From an uncultured Chitinophagaceae bacterium (GTDB lineage: Bacteria > Bacteroidota > Bacteroidia > Chitinophagales > Chitinophagaceae): DNA of 41,744 nucleotides. The notes beneath the pieces are model-generated. The model saw nothing but the letters and a program-made list of their open reading frames with translations. It did no database searches and was not told the DNA's origin. The stretch covers positions 1 to 41,744 of the forward strand of contig CAIRTF010000012.1 in assembly GCA_903881425.1 (NCBI GenBank). The letters are read 5' to 3'. Below, piece after piece: positions 2,420 through 13,709 of the stretch. The first letter of the stretch is position 1. Every line of letters begins with the position of its first letter. Made by a program: the position numbers and the translations under genes.

Positions 2420-4267
2420 ATGAGTACAACAGACCAAATTTTACAGGATGTAGTGATCAAATTTGCAGGCGATAGTGGTGATGGTATGCAATTGACAGGT
2501 CAGCAGTTTACCAACAATACCGCATTATTAGGAATTGATTTAGCAACCTTTCCGGATTTCCCTGCCGAGATTCGTGCCCCGATAGGAACCTTACCGGGTG
2601 TAAGTGGTTTTCAATTACATTTTTCTTCTAACAAAGTATATACACCGGGAGATATTGCCGATGTATTGGTTGCGATGAATGCAGCTGCATTGAAAGTAAA
2701 TTTAAAAAGTATTAAACCGGGCGGAAAGATCATTGCCAATATTGATGGATTTGATTCGAAGAATTTACGTTTGGCAAATTATCCGGATGGTATCAATCCT
2801 TTAGAAGACGGAAGTTTGGATAGTTATGATTTGATTAAGATTGATGTTACCAAATTAACTCGTGAATCATTAAAAGATTTTACTGATTTAGGGGTGAAAG
2901 AAAGAGACCGGGCCAAGAATATGTTTGTATTAGGTTTTATTTATTGGATGTATAACAGAAGTTTAGAAAACACCATCGAATTCCTAAAAGAAAAATTCGG
3001 GAAAAAAGAAACCATTTTGCAAAGCAATATTAAAGTATTGCAAGCAGGTTATAATTATGGTGATACCACTGAAACATTTACTACCCGATATAAAGTTGAG
3101 AAAGCAAAAATGCCTGCAGGATTGTATCGCAGCATCATGGGTAATCAGGCATTAACATACGGATTGATTGCAGCGAGTGAAAAAAGTGGCTTACCCATTT
3201 TCTTAGGTTCTTACCCTATCACTCCGGCATCAGATATTTTACATGAATTAAGTAAGTATAAAAGTTTTGGTGTTAAAACATTTCAGGCCGAAGATGAAAT
3301 TGCAGCAATTACTTCTGCTATCGGCGCAAGCTATGGTGGTTTACTGGGTATCACTACAACCAGTGGTCCGGGTATGGCATTAAAAGCAGAAGCGATGGGA
3401 TTAGCAGTGATGTTAGAAATTCCATTGGTAATCGTGAACATTCAACGTGGCGGACCATCAACCGGTTTACCTACCAAAACAGAACAGAGTGATTTGATGC
3501 AAGCTTATTATGGCAGAAACGGCGAATGCCCGATGCCCGTGATTGCTTCATCTACACCAAGCGATTGTTTTGAAGTAGCTTATGAAGCATGCAGAATTGC
3601 ATTGCAACACATGACACCGGTTATTTTATTAAGTGATGGATATATTGCCAATGGTGCAGAGCCTTGGCGCTTCCCGACCTCCAATGATTTGAAACCAATC
3701 AATGTAAAATTCAAAACCAGTTTGGATGAAGGCGAAGAAAAATTCATGCCTTATAAAAGAGATGAAAAATTAGTTCGTCCATGGGCCATTCCGGGAACAG
3801 CGGGTTTTGAACATCGCATTGGTGGTTTGGAAAAACAAGATATTACCGGCAATGTAAGCTATGATGCAGATAACCATCAGCACATGGTTAAAACAAGACA
3901 AGCCAAAGTTGATAAGATCGCAGATCATATTCCTTTACAAAAAATGGATAGTGGTGCTGATAAAGGAAAAGTATTGGTACTTGGTTGGGGTTCTACTTAT
4001 GGTGCTATTAAAAGTGCAGTATTAGAATTACAGGCACAAGGCAAATCGGTGAGTCATGCACACATACGTTATATACGTCCTTTCCCTAAAAATTTGGGAG
4101 AAATCATCAGCAATTTTGAAACAGTATTGATTCCGGAAATTAATAACGGACAATTGGTAAAAATTATTCGTGATGAATATATGGTAGATGCCAAAGCCTA
4201 TAATAAAATTATGGGTGTGCCCATTACCAAAGGCGAATTGGTAGATGTGTTGAAGAAGATGTTGTAA
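2420..4267 (+). CDS. korA: 2-oxoacid:acceptor (ferredoxin) oxidoreductase, fused gamma-alpha subunit
   Basis: The protein has 615 residues. Residues 1 to about 190 are the gamma domain, starting VVIKFAGDSGDGMQLTG. The rest is the alpha (pyrimidine-binding) domain with YPITPASDIL (265-274), QAEDE (289-293) and TTTSGPGMALKAEAMGLA. The family oxidatively decarboxylates 2-oxoglutarate or a related 2-oxoacid to acyl-CoA and reduces ferredoxin or another acceptor. This subunit needs a beta subunit (KorB) that carries thiamine diphosphate and an Fe-S cluster. In Bacteroidota korB normally follows directly; here 368 bp of non-coding DNA and then an unrelated amidohydrolase follow. Substrate is inferred from the fused architecture, so 2-oxoglutarate is likely but not proven. 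Confidence 0.9.
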   Translation: MSTTDQILQDVVIKFAGDSGDGMQLTGQQFTNNTALLGIDLATFPDFPAEIRAPIGTLPGVSGFQLHFSSNKVYTPGDIADVLVAMNAAALKVNLKSIKPGGKIIANIDGFDSKNLRLANYPDGINPLEDGSLDSYDLIKIDVTKLTRESLKDFTDLGVKERDRAKNMFVLGFIYWMYNRSLENTIEFLKEKFGKKETILQSNIKVLQAGYNYGDTTETFTTRYKVEKAKMPAGLYRSIMGNQALTYGLIAASEKSGLPIFLGSYPITPASDILHELSKYKSFGVKTFQAEDEIAAITSAIGASYGGLLGITTTSGPGMALKAEAMGLAVMLEIPLVIVNIQRGGPSTGLPTKTEQSDLMQAYYGRNGECPMPVIASSTPSDCFEVAYEACRIALQHMTPVILLSDGYIANGAEPWRFPTSNDLKPINVKFKTSLDEGEEKFMPYKRDEKLVRPWAIPGTAGFEHRIGGLEKQDITGNVSYDADNHQHMVKTRQAKVDKIADHIPLQKMDSGADKGKVLVLGWGSTYGAIKSAVLELQAQGKSVSHAHIRYIRPFPKNLGEIISNFETVLIPEINNGQLVKIIRDEYMVDAKAYNKIMGVPITKGELVDVLKKML

Positions 4268-4271
4268 TTCA

Positions 4272-4298
4272 TGTCAGTCTGAGGCTCTCTGAGACTGA
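4272..4298. repeat. Dispersed imperfect palindrome, copy 1
   Basis: A 27-bp stretch with TCAGTCT (4274-4280) mirrored by AGACTGA (4292-4298) around a GAGGCTCTC core. It matches the copy at 7641-7667 at 20 of 27 positions by direct alignment. It lies five bases after the korA stop, as expected for a REP-like extragenic element. Confidence 0.55.
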
Positions 4299-4310
4299 TC
4301 AATATAATTA

Positions 4311-4353
4311 AATGCCCTTCGGAAGAGAAAAAAATAATCTTCAGAAGGGCATT
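4311..4353 (+). terminator. Long hairpin after korA, probable terminator
   Basis: The 16-nt arms 4311-4326 and 4338-4353 pair at 15 of 16 positions (AATGCCCTTC and its complement plus five more pairs after one mismatch), around an 11-nt A-rich loop. Only a short T run follows (4352-4354), so termination or 3'-end protection is plausible but less certain than a classic T-tailed site. Confidence 0.55.
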
Positions 4354-4517
4354 TTGCTGTTCAGAACGGCATCGTTCGTCTTCTTCACGGTATTAATTAG
4401 CTGTCTCGTGCTGAATTAGGTTGAGTAAAAATCCACCCAAATGGAATTAAAAGATCAGCAATATTGCAGTCATAAATCACAGCTATCCAAAACTTCCGAA
4501 GGATGCCTATCAATAGC

Positions 4518-4556
4518 AAAAGCAAATCATTCTAAGTTTGATTTGCTTTTTTATTT
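4518..4556 (+). terminator. T-tailed hairpin upstream of the amidohydrolase
   Basis: AAAAGCAAATC at 4518-4528 pairs perfectly over 11 bp with 4540-4550 around an 11-nt loop, and T-rich sequence follows. It would stop plus-strand transcripts about 80 bp before the amidohydrolase start. Since korA already has a hairpin at 4311-4353, it could serve a short transcript arising between them. Confidence 0.55.
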
Positions 4557-4635
4557 TCCTTCATTCCTTAAATTCCTTGCAAAAAAGAAATTCTCTTTAG
4601 TATATTCATCTTCTTAATCGCCAAAAACATTTATC

Positions 4636-5940
4636 ATGAGAAAAAAATTATTCTTGCCCATTGGCTTATTGTTGTGCATCATCGTTCATGCACAGGATAA
4701 ACCAATGGCATTTAAAGGTGCCCTCATCTATCCTATTAACGGTACGCCTATTCAAAACGGAACATTGATTGTTCAAGATGGAAAGATCATTGCAGTAGGT
4801 GATGCGAATACAAAAATTCCGGCCGATGCAATCATTACTGATGCAAAAGGTAAAGTGATCATGCCCGGCATTGTGGATACCCATTCACATCTCGGCGGAC
4901 CGGAAGGCGGCGATAATTCTGCTGCATTAAATCCGGATACCAGAGCATTCGATGCCATCAATCCAACAAGTGATGGATTTAAAAAAGCATTGGCAGGCGG
5001 ATTAACTACTTTAAATATTATGCCGGGCAGCGGACACTTAATGAGTGGTCAAACGGTTTATGTAAAAATGCGTGAAGCGAAAGTGATGGAAGACTTAATT
5101 ATTGTAAATGAAAAAGGGGTGTATGGCGGAATGAAAATGGCTAATGGAACAAATCCGATGCGTGGTACAACAGGTTTTCCGGGAACAAGAGCCAAGAGTG
5201 CAGCGATGGACAGAGACTTATTTGTAAAAGCACAGGAGTACAAAAAGAAAATGGAAAAAGCTGTAAAAGATTCTTCTAAAACTTTTGAAAGAGATTTAAG
5301 ATTAGAACCTCTGGTTGAAGTATTGCAGGGCAAACGTGTTGTGCATTTTCATACACATAAAGAGAATGATATTTTAACAGCTATTCGTTTAAGTAAAGAA
5401 TTCGGTTTTAGAGTGGTGTTGCATCATGTAAGTGAAGGATGGAAAGTATATGATGAGATTGCAAAAGCAGGTGTGCCTTGTTCAATCATTGTGATTGAAT
5501 CTCCCGGCGGTAAATTAGAAGCGATGGATTATTCCTCTGCCAATGGTGCTGCCTTATCGAATGCAGGTGTATTAACGGGTTTTCATACAGATGATGGCAT
5601 TACCGATTCTCGTTTACTCATTCGTGCTGCTGCAATGGCTGTAAGAGCAGGCATGAATAAAGACAAAGCATTGGAAGCATTAACCATCAACGGTGCAAAA
5701 ATGTTGGATTTGTCTTCTCGTATCGGTTCATTAGAAAAAGGAAAAGATGCTGACTTTATTATTTTATCCGGCGATCCATTCAGTGTTTATACAAAAGTTG
5801 AACAAACTTGGGTAGAAGGAAAAAAACGTTATGATATTAAAAATCCGGATGACAAAGCATTTTTGTTTGGCGGATTTAAAGTGTATTCAACCGAAAGAGA
5901 AGAATACATGAACCATGATGATGAAATCGGTAATCAATAA
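4636..5940 (+). CDS. Secreted amidohydrolase (imidazolonepropionase-like), catalytic member of a tandem pair
   Basis: The product has 434 residues. The signal peptide MRKKLFLPIGLLLCIIVHAQ points to export to the periplasm. The body is a composite-domain amidohydrolase: an N-terminal beta-sandwich strand set, then MPGIVDTHSHLGG with the first-strand metal ligands His83 and His85, and further histidines at VVHFHTH (237-241), VLHH (263-264) and FHTDD (317-320). These cover the usual metal-site positions of imidazolonepropionase-type and dipeptidase-type amidohydrolases. The C-terminus has SLEKGKDADFIILSGDPF, the typical closing strand. The substrate is unknown; a cyclic amide, dipeptide or N-acyl compound is possible. 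The stop is followed 19 bp later by the start of a divergent paralogue, so the two are very probably co-transcribed. Confidence 0.85.
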   Translation: MRKKLFLPIGLLLCIIVHAQDKPMAFKGALIYPINGTPIQNGTLIVQDGKIIAVGDANTKIPADAIITDAKGKVIMPGIVDTHSHLGGPEGGDNSAALNPDTRAFDAINPTSDGFKKALAGGLTTLNIMPGSGHLMSGQTVYVKMREAKVMEDLIIVNEKGVYGGMKMANGTNPMRGTTGFPGTRAKSAAMDRDLFVKAQEYKKKMEKAVKDSSKTFERDLRLEPLVEVLQGKRVVHFHTHKENDILTAIRLSKEFGFRVVLHHVSEGWKVYDEIAKAGVPCSIIVIESPGGKLEAMDYSSANGAALSNAGVLTGFHTDDGITDSRLLIRAAAMAVRAGMNKDKALEALTINGAKMLDLSSRIGSLEKGKDADFIILSGDPFSVYTKVEQTWVEGKKRYDIKNPDDKAFLFGGFKVYSTEREEYMNHDDEIGNQ

Positions 5941-5959
5941 ATCAATTAAAAAAATTAAA

Positions 5960-7168
5960 ATGAAACATTTATATAAAATAATTAGTTGCTTGTTATTGAT
6001 GCCATTCATCGCACAATCGCAAACAGCTATTAAAGCTGAAACTATTTATACCATCAGCGGTGCACCCATTAAAAATGGTGTTGTTTTAATTAAAGATGGA
6101 AAAATTGAAAGTGTGGGAACTGCAAAAGAAATTTCCATTCCAAAAAATTATACTGTTGTCAATGCAAAAATTGTTACACCGGGATTTGTGGATGCCAGAA
6201 GTGTAGTAGGTTTATCAGGTGCATTGAATATTCCAACAGATCAGGATCAATTAGAAAAATCATCTCCCATTCAACCTGAATTAAGAGCCATTGATGCATA
6301 TAACCCCGAAGAAAAATTAGTGGCTTATGTTAGAGACTATGGAGTTACCACCATGCATACCGGTCATGGCATTGGTGCATTGGTAAGTGGACAAACCATG
6401 ATCGTTAAAACAAAACCCGGAAAGATTGATGCTGTAACATTGGTACCAATGGAAATGTTGGCAATGACAATCGGTTCTTCTGTTCAGGGAAATTTTACCA
6501 GCCCGGGAACAAAAGCAAAACAAATTGCAATGATCAGAACGGAGTTGCTGAAAGCTCAAGGCTACATGCAAAAACAAAATGATAAAGACACATCTAAACG
6601 TCCGGCTACTGATTTAAAATATGAAGCATTAAGTAAATTATTGAAAGGCGAAGTGAAGGCATTGATCACAGTAAATTCTACTAACGATATCATGAATGCC
6701 ATTCGTTTAGCCAAAGAATTTAATTTTAAATTAGTGATTGATGGCGCAGCAGAAGCATACAAATTGATTGATGAAATAAAATCCGCTCATGCAGAAATTA
6801 TTTTACATGCAACGATGGCTCGCAATGGCGGCGATATGGTAAACATGACAAGAGAAAGTGCTGCCATCTTAACTGCTGCGGGCATTCCGGTTAGTATTGA
6901 AACCGGATATGAAGCGTATGTTCCTAAAACGCATGTGTTATTATTTGAAGCTGCATTGGCTGTTACTTATGGTTTACCTTATGAAGAAGGATTAAAAGCC
7001 ATTACATTAAATCCTGCTAAATTATTAGGCATTGATAAAAGAGTAGGCAGTATTGAAAAAGGTAAAGATGCCGATCTGGTTTTATTTGATGGAGATCCTT
7101 TTGAATACTTATCCAAAGTTTGTAAAGTAATGATCGATGGAAATTGGGTGAGTGATAATTGCAAATAA
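5960..7168 (+). CDS. Secreted amidohydrolase-like protein lacking the metal ligands (probable pseudoenzyme)
   Basis: The ATG at 5960 gives a clean signal peptide (MKHLYKIISCLLLMPFIAQS) and a 402-residue protein. A longer in-frame start at 5915 overlaps the previous gene and would bury the signal. The fold is that of its upstream neighbour, with matching stretches TIYTISGAPIKNGVVLIKDG, NAIRLAKEFNFKLVI and SIEKGKDADLVLFDGDPF. The catalytic histidines are gone: DTHSH of the partner reads DARSV here (Arg80, Val82), VVHFHTH reads ALITVNS, VLHH reads VIDG and FHTDD reads IETGY. It cannot build the usual binuclear or mononuclear site, so it is probably a structural or regulatory subunit of its neighbour or has a different activity. 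A T-tailed hairpin at 7183-7217 ends the operon. Confidence 0.82.
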   Translation: MKHLYKIISCLLLMPFIAQSQTAIKAETIYTISGAPIKNGVVLIKDGKIESVGTAKEISIPKNYTVVNAKIVTPGFVDARSVVGLSGALNIPTDQDQLEKSSPIQPELRAIDAYNPEEKLVAYVRDYGVTTMHTGHGIGALVSGQTMIVKTKPGKIDAVTLVPMEMLAMTIGSSVQGNFTSPGTKAKQIAMIRTELLKAQGYMQKQNDKDTSKRPATDLKYEALSKLLKGEVKALITVNSTNDIMNAIRLAKEFNFKLVIDGAAEAYKLIDEIKSAHAEIILHATMARNGGDMVNMTRESAAILTAAGIPVSIETGYEAYVPKTHVLLFEAALAVTYGLPYEEGLKAITLNPAKLLGIDKRVGSIEKGKDADLVLFDGDPFEYLSKVCKVMIDGNWVSDNCK

Positions 7169-7667: not shown

Positions 7668-8318
7668 TTAAAGTTTATTCGCAAAATGCTTCTCATAATA
7701 TTTACACGCTTCTTTAATTCCGCAGCTTTCGCATTTAGGATTTCTTGCAATACAAACATAACGTCCGTGTAATATTAACCAATGATGTGCTTTATGAATC
7801 AATGCTTCGGGAATATTTTTAATTAATTGTTTTTCTGTTGCCAATGGAGTTGTGGCATTCGTTGTTAAACCAATTCTTGCACTAACACGAAACACATGTG
7901 TATCAACAGCCATATTCGGTTGTTGGTCAATTACACTGGTAATTACATTCGCCGTTTTTCTTCCAACACCGGGTAATTGTACTAATTCATCAACCGTCAT
8001 CGGCACTTGGCCATTAAATTTATCCAATAACATATTTGCCATGCTAATTAAATGTTTGGTCTTGTTATTGGGATAAGAAATGCTTTTGATAAAAGGAAAC
8101 AATTCTTCAAATGTAGCCGTAGCAAGCATTTGCGCTGTTGGATATTCTTTAAAAATAGCTGGCGTGGTTAAATTAACACGCACATCGGTGCATTGAGCAG
8201 ATAAAATAACCGATACCAATAATTGAAAAGGGCTATCATATATTAATTCTGTTTCAGCATTGGGTGCATGTTGCTGAAAATAATTGATGATGAATTCGTA
8301 ACGTTCTTTCTTGGTCAT
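7668..8318 (-). CDS. nth: Endonuclease III (DNA glycosylase/AP lyase)
   Basis: With the ATG at 8316-8318 the protein has 216 residues, close to the 211 of E. coli Nth. The helix-hairpin-helix reads LVQLPGVGRKTANVI, placing the catalytic Lys at 121, and VDTHVFRV supplies the catalytic Asp139. The C-terminal [4Fe-4S] loop has Cys189, Cys196, Cys199 and Cys205 with the classic C-x6-C-x2-C-x5-C spacing. The enzyme removes oxidised pyrimidines and nicks the resulting abasic site in base-excision repair. An in-frame upstream start at 8351 would add an unconserved MVFICFFALIN and is rejected. The stop lies immediately beside a palindromic repeat. Confidence 0.95.
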   Translation of the reverse strand: MTKKERYEFIINYFQQHAPNAETELIYDSPFQLLVSVILSAQCTDVRVNLTTPAIFKEYPTAQMLATATFEELFPFIKSISYPNNKTKHLISMANMLLDKFNGQVPMTVDELVQLPGVGRKTANVITSVIDQQPNMAVDTHVFRVSARIGLTTNATTPLATEKQLIKNIPEALIHKAHHWLILHGRYVCIARNPKCESCGIKEACKYYEKHFANKL

Positions 8319-8698
8319 ATTTATTAATGCAAAAAAACAAATAAATACCATTCAATATTTTAAAAAATTAAGTGTAAGTGTGTGATATTTTATAAGTACC
8401 TCACACGTCTTTTAAATCACTTTAATCAAGAAAAAAGCCAGTATAAATATCATGCCAAAATTAATTAATCGATCTGCCATATATCATATATACAAAATAC
8501 TAAAGTGTAATCTACTTGTATATAGATGAATTAAAAAATAAGGCTCTAAAATACCGTGTTTTCACGGAGAAAAGCACCGTGTTTTCACGGGAAAAAATAC
8601 CGTGAAAAAATCGAAAGAAATAGATGTTTCTATAATGCAATTTTAAATTTTAGTATTTATGTTTACTTATTATATTTTTAAAATTTAAATAGCTGCTC
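8319..8698. other. AT-rich intergenic region with operator-like repeats
   Basis: About 380 bp with no credible gene on either strand. It holds a short inverted repeat (TATATACAA at 8487-8495, TTGTATATA at 8516-8524, 20-bp spacer) and the three-unit repeat at 8552-8620. It separates nth from the island lipoprotein gene, so it presumably carries the promoters of both. Confidence 0.6.
8552..8620. promoter_or_regulatory. Three 23-bp tandem units, two with a CCGTGTTTTCACGG palindrome
   Basis: Units begin at 8552, 8575 and 8598, exactly 23 bp apart. Units 1 and 2 share the palindrome CCGTG-TTTT-CACGG (8554-8567 and 8577-8590) followed by an A-rich spacer. Unit 3 keeps the left half (TACCGTG, then AAAAAA). 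A period of just over two helical turns puts all sites on nearly the same DNA face, as in co-operative operators. The array lies about 80 bp upstream of the frameshifted lipoprotein start. The half-site (A)CCGT and the spacing are loosely like LytTR-type direct-repeat sites, which is only a suggestion. Alternatively the palindromes act as RNA hairpins in the leader. Confidence 0.6.
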
Positions 8699-8817
8699 AT
8701 GAAAAAATTATTCTACTTTTATTAGTAACAATAAACTTATTTGTTATAAACAGTTGTCGTAAAGAATCGCTTTTAGCTCCGAATAATTTAGCTGCTTCTA
8801 CTCAAGGCAATATTCAA
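8699..8817 (+). pseudogene. Out-of-frame lipoprotein signal peptide of the next gene
   Basis: The only ATG near the expected start (8699-8701) is followed by six A (8702-8707) and reads MKKLFYFY, then TAG at 8723-8725. The frame of the downstream gene is open back to 8689. From 8705 it encodes a hydrophobic run ILLLLVTINLFVINSC with a lipobox-like cysteine, then RKESLLAPNN. One extra A in the A-tract would fuse ATG to this sequence and give a textbook 20-residue lipoprotein signal. No ATG, GTG or TTG exists in the correct frame between 8689 and 8818. The break is a real mutation, a phase-variable tract, or a sequencing or assembly error. Confidence 0.75.
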
Positions 8818-10116
8818 ATGCAAGAAATTATAAGTTGGGGAGATGCGTTCACTAATAGCTTAACCAATCAGCCAATACTTTTATATAATAAAGCGCAACA
8901 AACTAATTTTAAAGGGAAATATATTGTAAGGATACCAGTACAAGATAGTAAAGGATATTTCTATTTAACCAAAACTGATACTGGATTACGTTCTGTTTTT
9001 GTAAGGGCATTTGCTAAAACACCAAATACTTTAAATGGTTATGTTGAGTTTGCTGATTTTCAAAATCAAACATACAAAGTGGTTAGTTATAAAAATAATA
9101 AACACGATTCAATTTATGTTTTAAATAATTGGAACATTTTATATGATCAATTAAAAAATAGCAATCCAATTGTATCAACTATTTTTGTTGCTCAAGGACC
9201 TATTGGATGTCCGCCCCCTGCGAATTCTTCTAGCGGTGGCGGTTTTTGGAATTGGTTAGGTGGTATATTTGGAAGTATCGGAGATTTTTTTGATTGGCTA
9301 TTTGGTGGGAGTGAATATGAGGAAAGTAGTGGAACCGCAGGCAATTCTGGTGATTTACCTATTCCTAGTTATCCGCCTCCAGGTTATAATTTTGGTGGTT
9401 GGAGTCTCAGTGATTTAATAGGAGATGATGGTTCGGGTACATGGAATTTCCTTGTCGGTGGGGGTGGTTCAGGCGGAGTATATGATCCAGCATACGATCC
9501 ACTTCCAGATGCAAATATTATTGATACATATGATGATTCTCCAATTAATTCAAATGATAATGATAATACTCCTATTAACTTTGATTCCAACAATGATCCT
9601 TGGCCAACTATTAATAATGTGATTTCAACTAATCAATGCGTATTATATGATCACAGAAATTGTTTAGTACTTGCAAGAGCCCAAATTGCTAAGAAGGGTC
9701 TTTTAGATCTTGGTTCAGGAGATGTTTATCAAACATTTAAAGCATCAACTGGTTATAACAGTACAGCAGCAAAAAATGGTGTTGATTATATTATCACAAA
9801 ATTGAAATTGGGTTTACCGGTAATTGTCGGAGTAGATAATATACAGGGGTCTCCAGCAGGAAATCCAGATCAAACTACTGACCATTTTGTTGTGATTGTT
9901 GGTTCTGGAACAGATGGGAATGGAAATTATTTTCAATTCTATGATAATGCTTCGCGAAATCTTTCTGGTGCAGCCAACCCTTATAACAGATTATATTATC
10001 AGCCCTCTACTGGAATTATTGGTAAATCGCAAACTGGCTATGCAACTCAACAGGGGCGTCATGATTATATTGTTACTCAAATTAGGAAAAGCAAATCGAC
10101 AATAGTAAATGATTAA
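8818..10116 (+). CDS. Island lipoprotein with Gly/Asn-rich linker and papain/C39-like C-terminal domain (5' end frameshifted)
   Basis: The readable frame from ATG 8818 gives 432 residues; the natural start is probably the out-of-frame ATG at 8699. Residues 1-130 form a beta-rich region with no family I recognise. Residues 131-265 are low-complexity, rich in Gly, Ser, Pro, Asn and Asp, with a Trp/Phe patch (GGFWNWLGGIFGSIGDFFDW, 141-160). The C-terminal 160 residues have the order expected of a papain-like or C39-like hydrolase: NC at 281-282, GLPVIVGVD (332-340), DHFVVIVGSG with His356, and FYDNAS with Asp376/Asn377. Catalysis is inferred from this pattern only. It could be a surface peptidase, an amidase or the toxin domain of an antibacterial effector. 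A secreted-protein gene follows 13 bp after the stop. Confidence 0.65.
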   Translation: MQEIISWGDAFTNSLTNQPILLYNKAQQTNFKGKYIVRIPVQDSKGYFYLTKTDTGLRSVFVRAFAKTPNTLNGYVEFADFQNQTYKVVSYKNNKHDSIYVLNNWNILYDQLKNSNPIVSTIFVAQGPIGCPPPANSSSGGGFWNWLGGIFGSIGDFFDWLFGGSEYEESSGTAGNSGDLPIPSYPPPGYNFGGWSLSDLIGDDGSGTWNFLVGGGGSGGVYDPAYDPLPDANIIDTYDDSPINSNDNDNTPINFDSNNDPWPTINNVISTNQCVLYDHRNCLVLARAQIAKKGLLDLGSGDVYQTFKASTGYNSTAAKNGVDYIITKLKLGLPVIVGVDNIQGSPAGNPDQTTDHFVVIVGSGTDGNGNYFQFYDNASRNLSGAANPYNRLYYQPSTGIIGKSQTGYATQQGRHDYIVTQIRKSKSTIVND

Positions 10117-10129
10117 TATTGTAAATAAT

Positions 10130-10441
10130 ATGAAAAAAATAATTCAAATAATATTCCTTTTTTGTTTGTCTACAACAAATATAAATGGACAAACAAAAAA
10201 AGATACTACATTTTTATTACAAGAATTCCTTTCTGATGGAGCATATCATGTTGTTTTCGTAGAGAATAATCCAAATTCAAATTATTATAAAATGATTCAA
10301 TTACCTAAGATTGATTTCTCAGAATATAAGGGAAACTTAAAAAAAATTACAGATAGTTTTTCAGTGCCGATAAAAAAACATTTATTATATAATATAGCAA
10401 AGGAATGGTATCCTCTTAAATTATATAGAAACAAATATTAA
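10130..10441 (+). CDS. Small secreted protein, N-terminal fragment cut by an in-frame stop
   Basis: The ATG at 10130 gives a signal peptide (MKKIIQIIFLFCLSTTNING) and a 103-residue product that ends at TAA 10439-10441. An in-frame ATG at 10109 overlaps the preceding gene and spoils the signal peptide. Past the stop the same frame remains open for 125 codons with similar composition to the end at 10819, so the protein was probably about 230 residues long. I recognise no domain. Its tight spacing behind the papain-like lipoprotein suggests co-transcription and perhaps a partner or inhibitor function; that is inference. Confidence 0.6.
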   Translation: MKKIIQIIFLFCLSTTNINGQTKKDTTFLLQEFLSDGAYHVVFVENNPNSNYYKMIQLPKIDFSEYKGNLKKITDSFSVPIKKHLLYNIAKEWYPLKLYRNKY

Positions 10442-10819
10442 TTATATATTCCTTCAGATCCGGGGATAAACCCCTGGGTTAAAATAAATGATAGTTCCAT
10501 TAATGAACTGTATTTTGACCCAGGAATAGTAACATCTATTATTAAAAATACTGAAAGGATTGACTCAAATACTATTCAACTAACTGTAGCAAATTTAACT
10601 GTAGGGCAAGTATCATTCAAAGTACATGTGATAAATATCAATAAAGGGCTTGCAATTTTTGAACGCCCATATTCTTCGCCTGAATATAAATACACACTAA
10701 TGATTGAGAAAAGTAAGATTAAAAATTACCCTATTATTGTTAATTACTGTAATGAGAGTAGAGTCGATGAGTGGAAGTTTGATAATCCAGATTTTTTAAC
10801 TCTTTTAAGAAAGAAATAA
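10442..10819 (+). pseudogene. C-terminal remainder of the interrupted secreted protein
   Basis: This stretch is in the same frame as the gene that stops at 10441 and is open to TAA 10817-10819. It reads LYIPSDPGINPWVKIND, then on to a sub-ORF starting MININKGLAIFERPYSSPEY at 10628. No new signal peptide or convincing start is near 10442, and the sub-ORF begins mid-domain. The simplest reading is one ancestral gene with a single nonsense codon at 10439. Read-through or re-initiation at 10628 is possible but unsupported. Together with the lesion at 8702-8707, both genes of the island are broken. Confidence 0.65.
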
Positions 10820-10821
10820 TC

Positions 10822-11058
10822 CTATTTTTTCTTGCCATTATCTTTTGCATATTTTAAAATAGCATCAATACTTTTTTGAGAGGGAGACAAAGGTTTACCT
10901 TTTAATTCTTCCAATTGCTTTTTGGTGCGTTGCAGCAATTTAATTTCTTTCTGAAGATCCATATCGTCCTTCATAGCTGTATCAATGGCAAGTTTTAAAA
11001 TAGGTGATGCATCGCCATAGAGGTATAGCATCAGTTGTTCCTGCGTAAATTTCTGCAT
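10822..11058 (-). CDS. Small hypothetical protein, anti-sigma N-terminus-like
   Basis: The product has 78 residues and begins MQKFTQEQLMLYLYGDASPI, followed by a charged helical segment with Lys-rich ends. It has no signal peptide and no membrane segment. The opening resembles the short N-terminal segments (F-T-x-E-x-L-x-x-Y-x-Y-x-D) found in Bacteroidota anti-sigma-like proteins, but it lacks the zinc-finger histidine/cysteine set and any membrane helix. It is a stand-alone small protein of unknown function, possibly protein-binding. Its stop is two bases from the end of the convergent broken gene. Confidence 0.65.
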   Translation of the reverse strand: MQKFTQEQLMLYLYGDASPILKLAIDTAMKDDMDLQKEIKLLQRTKKQLEELKGKPLSPSQKSIDAILKYAKDNGKKK

Positions 11059-11168
11059 AAATTGGTTGAAAAATGCAATAGTAAATATACTGCTTTCGAA
11101 GGGTAAAATTGTAGGCTTATATTTAAACGCCTTCTTATAAAAATTATTGCAACAAATTATTTTTTAAG

Positions 11169-11462
11169 CTATTTTTTAGAAGGCTCAATGATATAAATAT
11201 CTTCTCCGTCACGTTTCATCATATATTTTTCTCTGGCAAATTTTTCCAATGCATCGGGATTGTTTTGCAGATCGGCTAATTCTTTCTTTGCTTTTTCTAT
11301 TTCTGTTTCGTAATAGTGTTTTTTATTCTCGAGTTCTTTTAATTTTTGTCTTTGATCAGCCACATAAAAGAAATCGCGTTGATCAAAGAATAACATCCAC
11401 ACAATAAAAAAACCGGTGGCAATTAAATATTTATTGGTGATGATGGATGCAAATTTTTTCAT
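11169..11462 (-). CDS. ftsB: FtsB/DivIC-family septum formation initiator
   Basis: The ATG at 11460-11462 gives 97 residues. An N-terminal membrane helix (about YLIATGFFIVWMLFF) is followed by a periplasmic coiled coil (QRQKLKELENKKHYYETEIE) and the conserved C-terminal block LEKFAREKYMMKRDGEDIYI. This is the standard FtsB/DivIC pattern; such proteins bridge FtsL and FtsQ/DivIB in the divisome. The gene lies 86 bp downstream of eno in the same direction, the eno-ftsB order common in bacteria, which supports the call. An upstream in-frame start at 11477 adds only MIISV and is less likely. The intervening DNA has a hairpin (11481-11524). Confidence 0.88.
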   Translation of the reverse strand: MKKFASIITNKYLIATGFFIVWMLFFDQRDFFYVADQRQKLKELENKKHYYETEIEKAKKELADLQNNPDALEKFAREKYMMKRDGEDIYIIEPSKK

Positions 11463-11480
11463 AACAGATATAATCAAAAA

Positions 11481-11524
11481 TGACAGATAACGGAGTGAAA
11501 TTAATCATGCTTCGTTATCTGTCA
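11481..11524 (-). terminator. Hairpin between eno and ftsB/divIC (attenuator or processing site)
   Basis: TGACAGATAACG and its complement form arms at 11481-11495 and 11510-11524 with 14 of 15 pairs and a 14-nt loop. There is no T run on the minus strand right after it, so full termination is uncertain; it could reduce ftsB expression relative to eno. Confidence 0.45.
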
Positions 11525-11548
11525 TCTATAAACTAATTAACAGGATGT

Positions 11549-12892
<1,344 letters not shown>

Positions 12893-12931
12893 CTATAAAC
12901 TAACACAATTTGTATTAAAGGCTACCAAATG

Positions 12932-13630
12932 TTAGTTCGTTAATGAACGAAAAACTTCTTCTAAATTTTTACCTTGTTGCAGGTTTTGCAAACTATCATC
13001 TGCAACAATGGTTCCTTTATTAATAATAATGACCCTATCGCAAATGGCTTCTACTTCCTGTAAAATATGAGAAGAAAAAAGAATGGTCTTATTTTTGCCT
13101 TGTTGTTTGATGACATTTCTAATTTCAATGATCTGATTAGGATCTAATCCGCTTGTTGGTTCATCTAATATCAATACTTCCGGTTCATGTATCAATGCGG
13201 CAGCCAATCCTACTCTTTGCTTATATCCTTTGGATAACTGGCTGATCTTTTTCTTTTGCTCCACTTGTAATCCAACCAATTCAATCACATTTGAAATCCG
13301 AAATGTAGAATTTGGAATTTGATGAATACCTGCCACAAAACTCAAATACTCTTTCACATACATATCATAATACAAAGGATTTGATTCGGGCAGATAACCA
13401 ATTTTTCTTTTCGCAGCAATTGGTTCGCTTTTTACATCAATACCGCAAACTGTTGCCTTACCTGCATCCTGCAATAAATAACCCGTAATAATTTTCATGG
13501 TAGTGCTTTTACCTGCACCATTGGGTCCGAGAAAACCAACAATCTCTCCTTTATTTACAACAAAAGAAATATCATTCACTGCTTTTTGCTCGCCGTATTG
13601 TTTTAATAACCCTTTTACTTCAATTGACAT
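12932..13630 (-). CDS. ABC transporter ATP-binding protein, GldA-like
   Basis: The product has 232 residues. It has Walker A GPNGAGKST (35-43), signature LSKGYKQR (132-139), Walker B LILDEP (153-158), D-loop SGLD and the switch histidine in FSSHILQEVEAICDR. The early part (IGYLPESNPLYYDMYVKEYL) is strongly reminiscent of GldA, the ATPase of the gliding-associated GldAFG exporter of Bacteroidota. GldA is about 300 residues, however, and here the protein stops soon after the catalytic core, at LEEVFRSLTN. No permease gene is adjacent, so the partner must be encoded elsewhere. A general drug or lipid exporter ATPase cannot be excluded. Confidence 0.82.
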   Translation of the reverse strand: MSIEVKGLLKQYGEQKAVNDISFVVNKGEIVGFLGPNGAGKSTTMKIITGYLLQDAGKATVCGIDVKSEPIAAKRKIGYLPESNPLYYDMYVKEYLSFVAGIHQIPNSTFRISNVIELVGLQVEQKKKISQLSKGYKQRVGLAAALIHEPEVLILDEPTSGLDPNQIIEIRNVIKQQGKNKTILFSSHILQEVEAICDRVIIINKGTIVADDSLQNLQQGKNLEEVFRSLTN

Positions 13631-13666
13631 GCGCCCATTATTTGATAATCGAAATTAGTGCAATAA

Positions 13667-13709
13667 TAAAAAAGGCTTTGGATTACTTTCATAAAGAAAA
13701 TCCAAAACC
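13667..13709 (-). terminator. Intrinsic terminator of the MHS transporter operon
   Basis: Arms 13674-13684 and 13699-13709 pair at 10 of 11 positions (core TTGGATT/AATCCAA) with a 14-nt loop, and on the minus strand a run of T follows. It lies 22 bp past the stop of the small membrane protein gene. Confidence 0.7.

What the first reader, a model, noticed from the sequence alone, without database searches (positions are those of the whole stretch)
8699..8725. One-base frameshift in a six-A tract removes the lipoprotein signal from the island gene
The downstream gene has no start codon in its own frame before 8818, but its frame is open back to 8689 and encodes a perfect lipoprotein signal and lipobox cysteine. 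The only ATG (8699) is out of frame by one base at the A-tract 8702-8707. Adding one A restores MKKIILLLL...NSC. Options are a phase-variable on/off switch by slippage, polymerase slippage during transcription, a recent inactivating deletion, or a read error. The lesion is directly visible; its cause is not.
Basis: partly seen in the sequence, partly recalled or inferred. Interest (0 to 1): 0.65.

Follow-up and report, generated by a model that had tools for sequence, protein, structure and literature searches.

The report
Disarmed toxin from a switchable family
A bacterium carries a toxin-like gene whose membrane-anchoring signal is thrown out of frame by one base, next to a broken protection gene; relatives of this gene carry long DNA repeats at the same spot, which suggests that such weapons are switched on and off by DNA slippage, although this copy looks dead.

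Summary
The lesion is real. The only usable ATG (8699) is one base out of frame with a 1.4-kb gene that is open from 8689 and encodes a lipoprotein signal.

By its relatives the gene is a polymorphic toxin: one lipoprotein N-terminal module carries different C-terminal domains (papain/C39-like here; Tae4, Tox-MPTase3, DUF6973 elsewhere). The next gene matches immunity partners of C39 toxins and is also broken, by an in-frame TAA at 10439. The pair is a 2.5-kb cassette absent from the one congener held; no second immunity copy was found. I read this allele as decayed and locked off, not as a live switch.

Of 28 genes tabulated (window included), 9 carry a long repeat (poly-C, ACTCC or AAAC units) between ATG and lipobox, and all 9 are out of frame as assembled. 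The 18 others besides the window are in frame. Three out-of-frame genes show dN/dS of 0.10-0.14 downstream, so that frame has been used. Repeat-switched lipoprotein polymorphic toxins did not appear in the paper listings I saw, which were capped. Toxicity and within-strain switching could not be tested.

The parts
8321..10813 (.). toxin-immunity cassette absent from the one congener held (limits approximate)
   Evidence: window 7697-8320 and 10814-13709 match G001 contig 185 at 6182-6805 and 3264-6155, with 26 nt between the two matches in G001
8553..8590 (+). two copies of ACCGTGTTTTCACGG, 23 nt apart (a half copy follows at 8599), a shared upstream element
   Evidence: CCGTGTTTTCACGG lies 166-175 nt before the lipobox Cys codon in L018, L042, L043, L044 and L114
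8699..8725 (+). short ORF from the only usable ATG, ends before the lipobox (off frame)
8702..8707 (+). A6 tract at which the frame offset lies
   Evidence: A runs of 6 or more are common in the window
8689..10116 (+). open frame of the toxin (475 codons, no start codon before 8818)
8755..8757 (+). lipobox cysteine codon
   Evidence: invariant in 15 of 15 rows
8800..9213 (+). conserved N-terminal module (approximate limits)
   Evidence: alignments A1, A2
9535..10113 (+). C-terminal papain/C39-like domain; Cys 9661-9663, His 9883-9885, Asp 9943-9945
   Evidence: Cys and His invariant in 11 of 11 rows, Asp in at least 90%; profile match to PDB 9jdd_A, E 6.5e-39; Pfam Peptidase_C39_2 20 bits, cut-off 24
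10130..10441 (+). immunity gene, first half, ends at an in-frame TAA (10439-10441)
10442..10819 (+). immunity gene, second half, same frame, open after the TAA to its own stop
   Evidence: tail matches the genes just after the C39 toxins in L012 (1e-8), L011 (3e-8), L005 (1e-4)

Best explanation
The window holds a decayed copy of a lipoprotein-anchored polymorphic toxin and its immunity gene. In the working form (inferred) the signal peptide and lipobox carry the toxin to the envelope, the N-terminal module handles anchoring or delivery, and the C-terminal papain/C39-like domain attacks a neighbour. In this allele a one-base offset just after the start codon ends translation after 8 codons, so no lipoprotein is made (read from the sequence). 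The immunity gene then picked up a nonsense codon, which is tolerable once the toxin is off (inferred order). A return to the on state would leave the cell without intact immunity, so the allele is most likely locked off. Relatives use the same site as a switch: several carry long slippage-prone repeats there (inferred from comparison).
For: Frame offset and open frame. Lipobox invariant. Same N-module with different C-terminal domains: Tae4, Tox-MPTase3, DUF6973; Tae4, DUF3289. C39-like domain also at the end of L003, which looks like an RHS protein by eye. Immunity homology, with the stop at a position that is Tyr or Phe in 3 of 3 relatives. One match to the immunity profile in the own genome, the broken gene (13 of 19 first-look candidates were scored); of the 9 of 234 genomes with a hit, the 7 others with E below 1e-20 are uninterrupted, the TAA flagged in G065 being that gene's own stop. 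In contrast, 6 of 6 uninterrupted off members have an open frame of at least 100 codons directly after the toxin (not tested as immunity). Cassette absent from congener. A6 after ATG ordinary. The 6 genes grouped with the window in the tree have no long repeat and an in-frame ATG.
Against: The toxin frame is otherwise open over 432 codons after 8818 and keeps its catalytic residues, so decay must be recent. The upstream element is shared with four poly-C genes and L114. One genome only, no reads, no expression data. The truncated immunity protein might still work, or the nonsense codon might be polymorphic. The tree has long branches and a midpoint root.
Confidence: 0.72

Rival explanations
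1. Live phase variation: slippage in the A tract switches this toxin between on and off, and the genome caught it off.
For: 9 of the 28 tabulated genes have long repeats at this site and all 9 are out of frame; dN/dS of 0.10-0.14 in three of them shows the downstream frame has been kept; the window shares the upstream element with that clade.
Against: A6 is short and such tracts after ATG are common here; a relative, L017, has A7 after its ATG and is in frame; the immunity gene is broken and no second copy was found; the genes grouped with the window have no long repeat and are in frame.
Confidence: 0.15
2. Assembly or population-consensus artefact: the real genome has another tract length.
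For: Draft genome of 217 contigs, no reads available; homopolymers are error-prone on some platforms (recalled).
Against: The neighbouring gene has an independent nonsense codon, which is not a homopolymer error; I saw no other broken gene among the large ORFs that tile the window, an inspection and not a test; estimated completeness 99.4%.
Confidence: 0.08
3. The frame is corrected during expression, by RNA polymerase or ribosome slippage on the A tract.
For: The tract lies at the right place; the downstream frame is open.
Against: The repeat-bearing relatives are offset in both ways (one kind in six, the other in three) and have unrelated repeat units, which does not fit one programmed event; a six-A tract at codon 2 is a weak site (recalled).
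Confidence: 0.03
4. No lesion: the gene starts at 8818 and makes a cytoplasmic protein.
For: ATG at 8818 gives 432 aa.
Against: 18 of 18 tabulated genes without a long repeat, the window set aside, have an in-frame ATG before a lipobox; the cysteine is invariant in 15 of 15; 8818 lies inside the conserved module.
Confidence: 0.02

Closest known systems
Polymorphic toxins with constant N-domains in Bacteroidota: APD1/APD2 of Amoebophilus and Microscilla-N (Zhang et al. 2012, PMC3482391; passages seen)
   Same: constant N-terminal part and variable C-terminal effector domains; APD1/APD2 follow a lipobox
   Different: sequences were not compared here; the proteins match no NCBIfam family at E 0.01 in 7 of 7 tried; the Amoebophilus effectors are predicted to act on its eukaryotic host
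Tox-PLC39 papain-like toxin domain (same paper, passages) and the C39-like chains of PDB 9jdd, 9jg8, 9jg9
   Same: Cys, His, Asp; the paper lists RHS and T6SS contexts; profile match to 9jdd_A at 6.5e-39
   Different: sub-threshold to Pfam Peptidase_C39_2; what the PDB proteins do is not known to me; a search for the entry codes gave 11 papers, 5 listed, all unrelated
SitA lipoprotein toxins of Myxococcus (PMC5562445: listing and abstract start; PMC8546572: listing and one find)
   Same: lipoprotein anchor, variable toxin, partner immunity (recalled and abstract starts)
   Different: no SitA or TraA comparison was run; the one mention of phase variation in PMC8546572 is a reference title
Repeat-driven phase variation as in Neisseria, Haemophilus and Campylobacter (listing: titles and abstract starts)
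   Same: repeats that shift the reading frame
   Different: the cases in that listing are mainly surface antigens, receptors and a methyltransferase; here the switched product is a presumed interbacterial toxin's export signal

Membership tests
Polymorphic toxin system | constant N-terminal module with variable C-terminal toxin domains | tested here: met
Polymorphic toxin system | immunity gene directly downstream | tested here: met
   homology to genes after three C39 toxins; interrupted in the window
Polymorphic toxin system | export signal on the toxin | tested here: not met
   lost in this allele, present in relatives; hence a decayed copy, not a working member
Polymorphic toxin system | toxicity relieved by the immunity protein | not testable with these tools
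   needs bench work
Repeat-driven phase-variable gene (window allele) | unusually long repeat at the switch site | tested here: not met
   A6 only; 8 ATG-A6+ sites in the window
Repeat-driven phase-variable gene (relatives) | unusually long repeat between ATG and gene body | tested here: met
   9 of 28 genes; C8+ tracts in four genomes merge to 52 by my count, 4 of them at starts of these genes
Repeat-driven phase-variable gene (relatives) | repeat number differs between similar copies | tested here: met
   between species only: C13, C7, C8, C9 in L018, L042, L043, L044; short tracts in L105 and L114
Repeat-driven phase-variable gene (relatives) | reversible change within one strain | not testable with these tools
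   one genome per species, no reads
Papain-like C39 (Tox-PLC39) | conserved Cys and His, with Asp | tested here: met
   spans the Cys region
Papain-like C39 (Tox-PLC39) | fold | tested here: inconclusive
   AlphaFold model at mean pLDDT 44.7, not used
SitA outer-membrane-exchange toxins | sequence relation and TraA/TraB-dependent delivery | not tested
   no comparison was run

The most novel reading that the evidence does not exclude
Lipoprotein polymorphic toxins of Bacteroidota are armed by DNA slippage: unrelated repeats (poly-C, ACTCC, AAAC) sit at the same site between start codon and lipoprotein signal, so that only some cells export the toxin. Each of the 9 repeat-bearing genes sampled is off as assembled, and alleles left off, like the window's, go on to lose immunity.
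Probability: 0.7. Interest if true: 0.65.

Novelty: new variant of a known kind. Interest (0 to 1): 0.5.

Why it matters
If correct, whether a cell carries this kind of weapon is decided by random repeat slippage, a bet-hedging layer that I did not find described for polymorphic toxins. It also gives a simple route to losing immunity: once the toxin is off, the immunity gene is free to decay, and the window may show an early stage. It predicts mixed populations that can be counted by sequencing one short amplicon. It also suggests that annotation pipelines may call such genes pseudogenes or start them too far downstream.

Tried and rejected
Start at 8818 as the true start: rejected, see rivals. 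The A6 tract as a specialised tract: rejected. A second immunity copy in the genome: none found (13 of 19 first-look candidates scored). Structure prediction of the C39 domain from four sequences: mean pLDDT 44.7, not used. Plasmid relatives: none at 1e-5. Phylum draws: N-module in 1 of 395 genomes, the own one; the F. fryxellicola protein in 7 of 296, own included. Promoter and terminator scan: near chance. Upstream element in the own genome with two mismatches: 6 sites against 3 for the reversed control, so not informative alone. A search for papers on C39-like T6SS effectors listed 12 of 143, none of the 12 holding 'C39-like'; a further one listed 2 unrelated papers.

Limits of the 28-gene table. 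The genes were located by their lipobox peptide, so the table cannot by itself show that every relative has one; what supports that is that all 22 N-module genes with a readable 5' end (window included) do. 'Long repeat' was defined after seeing the data: C runs of 7 or more, or at least four units of 4-5 bases, between ATG and Cys; A runs of 6-7 and T runs were not counted, and some in-frame genes have them (L017 A7, L047 and L050 A6). Left out: loci without a readable 5' end or with another architecture (L002, L003, L004, L011, L012, L016, L019, L021, L033, L038, L039, L040, L041; L039 and L040 were not examined), repeated fetches of the same place, a relic without start (L115), L122 (second part of L114), and two genes that look like unrelated lipoproteins (L116, L117). 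The 28 are not independent: L015 and L034 are near copies from one genome and L050, L052, L121 are near copies, so the Fisher p of 2e-7 (window left out) is too small. Of the 9 repeat-bearing genes L044 and L046 carry further stops and L051 is short. L042 has in-frame TTG and GTG upstream, L006 an in-frame ATG 30 nt before the Cys codon, and others TTG or GTG inside the hydrophobic stretch; I judged these unlikely starts. The single-contig genomes G812 and G831 may be long-read assemblies with less certain tract lengths. In the tree the repeat labels are not clustered beyond shuffles, several branches are long, L044 (too short) and L006 (other N-module) are absent, and the number of origins is not fixed.

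Full report
What was claimed and what is there. This is correct to the base. The ATG frame ends at 8725. The long frame runs from 8689 to 10116 without an ATG, GTG or TTG before 8818, and the lipobox cysteine codon is 8755-8757. The window is the whole of contig 12 of a 2.75-Mb draft genome in 217 contigs.

What the gene is. A search of the family with the protein found relatives in 11 of 394 genomes, own genome included, and a scan of named genomes found Flavobacterium rhamnosiphilum, F. fryxellicola and a Chryseobacterium MAG. The N-terminal part is rare: 4 of 394 family genomes, 1 of 395 in a phylum draw, the own one, but 10 of 61 and 17 of 147 in one genus of the same family; of those 17, two hits look like unrelated lipoproteins (L116, L117) and one is a relic (L115). 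Behind this N-terminal part the C-terminal part changes from gene to gene: Tae4 in L018, L042 and L112, Tox-MPTase3 in L020 and L021, DUF6973 in L017, DUF3289 in L050, and a C39-like domain in the window and L049. For L043, L045, L105 and L108 Pfam gave nothing. The C39-like domain also ends L003, which looks like an RHS protein by eye (no domain search was run on it), and other large proteins (L002, L038). It keeps one cysteine and one histidine in 11 of 11 sequences, and its profile matches PDB chain 9jdd_A at 6.5e-39. Pfam alone gives a sub-threshold hit (20 bits, cut-off 24). This is the layout of a polymorphic toxin. Zhang et al. 2012 (PMC3482391, passages seen) describe a Tox-PLC39 domain and lipobox-bearing constant domains in Bacteroidetes.

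The partner gene. The next gene stops at an in-frame TAA (10439-10441), but its frame stays open to 10819. The second half matches the genes that directly follow C39 toxins in L012 (1e-8), L011 (3e-8) and L005 (1e-4); in all three the residue at the stop is Tyr or Phe. A profile of this immunity family hit 9 of 234 genomes: the own genome once, at this broken gene (13 of 19 first-look candidates scored); seven others with E below 1e-20, uninterrupted (the TAA flagged in G065 is that gene's own stop); and one weak match with stops, G069. Of the six of these loci that I read, five (L126-L130) show no C39 toxin among the frames of 90 codons or more in the flanks fetched. Both genes of the window's pair are thus broken, by unrelated kinds of lesion.

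A cassette. In the only congener held (G001; one search covered 2 genomes of the genus) the flanks lie next to each other: window 7697-8320 and 10814-13709 match with 26 nt between them. The 2.5 kb between is in essence the two genes and their upstream region.

Is the site special? I tabulated 28 genes with a readable 5' end: 22 share the N-module, window included, and 6 are linked through the C39 domain or the F. fryxellicola type of N-terminus. Nine have a long repeat (C run of 7 or more, or at least four units of 4-5 bases; a definition made after seeing the data) between the ATG and the lipobox: poly-C of 7 to 13 in L018, L042, L043, L044, L046, L051; ACTCC units in L108 and L112; eleven AAAC units in L006. 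In all nine no ATG before the repeat is in the open frame of the lipobox. In the 18 others besides the window there is an in-frame ATG. The window is the one gene without such a repeat that is out of frame. Fisher p is 2e-7 without the window, overstated because some genes are near copies. Under random phase nine of nine off has probability 0.026, so off may be favoured. The poly-C copies differ in tract length inside alignable DNA. C8 or longer tracts are rare: I merge the list to 52 tracts in four genomes of about 12.7 Mb in total, and 4 of them sit at starts of these genes; the C13 of L018 is the longest of 16 in its genome; the window's genome has one such tract, elsewhere. Many of the other tracts that I read lie as G runs inside long open frames, a few near the start of other genes.

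Are the off genes dead? For three off genes (L018, L042, L043) the N-module after the repeat has dN/dS of 0.10, 0.10 and 0.14 over 165 codons (synonymous sites are near saturation, so the values are rough). The downstream frame has therefore been under selection, as expected if the genes come on at times. Six of the nine (L006, L018, L042, L043, L108, L112) are otherwise uninterrupted, and each of these six has an open frame of at least 100 codons directly downstream, which I did not test as immunity. L044 and L046 carry further stops and L051 is short.

Back to the window. Its tract is A6, which is ordinary in this genome: ATG followed by six or more A occurs eight times in the window, with in-frame examples at 10130 and 40553, and the relative L017 has A7 there and is in frame. 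The tree groups the window with six genes that have no long repeat and an in-frame ATG, across a supported branch (99/97) from the seven repeat carriers that the tree holds; L044 and L006 are not in it, and long branches meet on the window's side. Against decay speaks that its upstream element CCGTGTTTTCACGG, in two copies, is shared with four poly-C genes and L114, 166-175 nt before the lipobox cysteine codon there and 178 and 201 nt here. Together with the broken immunity gene I take this allele to be locked off and decaying (0.72), with live switching as the main rival (0.15).

What is shown and what is inferred. Shown: frames, repeats, homology, domain variety, the immunity lesion, the empty site. 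Inferred: that the protein is toxic, that it acts on neighbours, the order of the two lesions, and that repeat length changes within a strain. None of these four was testable here.

Novelty. I searched papers for polymorphic toxins with lipoprotein and phase variation (20 of 26 listed), repeats and phase variation with Flavobacterium (20 of 66), phase variation with polymorphic or contact-dependent toxins (15 of 20; 8 of 8), repeats with type VI effectors (6 of 6), and phase variation in these groups (12 of 501, none of them about phase variation). Finds in PMC4287609, PMC8546572 and PMC3848433 showed passages only, none on a repeat-switched polymorphic toxin. No listed title or abstract start describes repeat-switched lipoprotein polymorphic toxins; subscription journals are largely missing, so this is weak evidence of absence. 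Lipoprotein polymorphic toxins and repeat-driven phase variation are each known; their joining at the export signal is what looks new.

Noticed in passing
window 8553-8567 and 8576-8590: ACCGTGTTTTCACGG, a short palindrome-like element, is shared with toxin genes L018, L042, L043, L044, L114 at a near-fixed distance and with the relic L115; degenerate tandem copies about 23 nt apart lie upstream of other genes in the same genome (L024, L025). Possibly an operator or promoter element.
   Followed up: partly
window 10439-10441: In-frame TAA in the immunity gene at a position that is Tyr or Phe in three relatives.
   Followed up: yes
L088 1500-1519 (G806 contig 14): A run of 20 C near the start of a gene that by eye resembles a winged-helix plus nucleotidyltransferase regulator; perhaps another repeat-switched gene in that genus.
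   Followed up: no
L126-L130: Immunity-family genes with no C39 toxin among the frames of 90 codons or more in the flanks fetched, for example after a fabD-like gene in L128 and L129; they look like orphan immunity genes.
   Followed up: partly
L004 from 1563: Downstream of toxin and immunity lies a fragment that by eye resembles the Tox-MPTase3-type end of L020 and L021 without an N-terminus, as expected of a silent toxin cassette.
   Followed up: no
L015, L021, L034 (G085): Closely similar N-terminal modules run into the ends of three contigs, as if several toxin genes with the same start broke the assembly.
   Followed up: no
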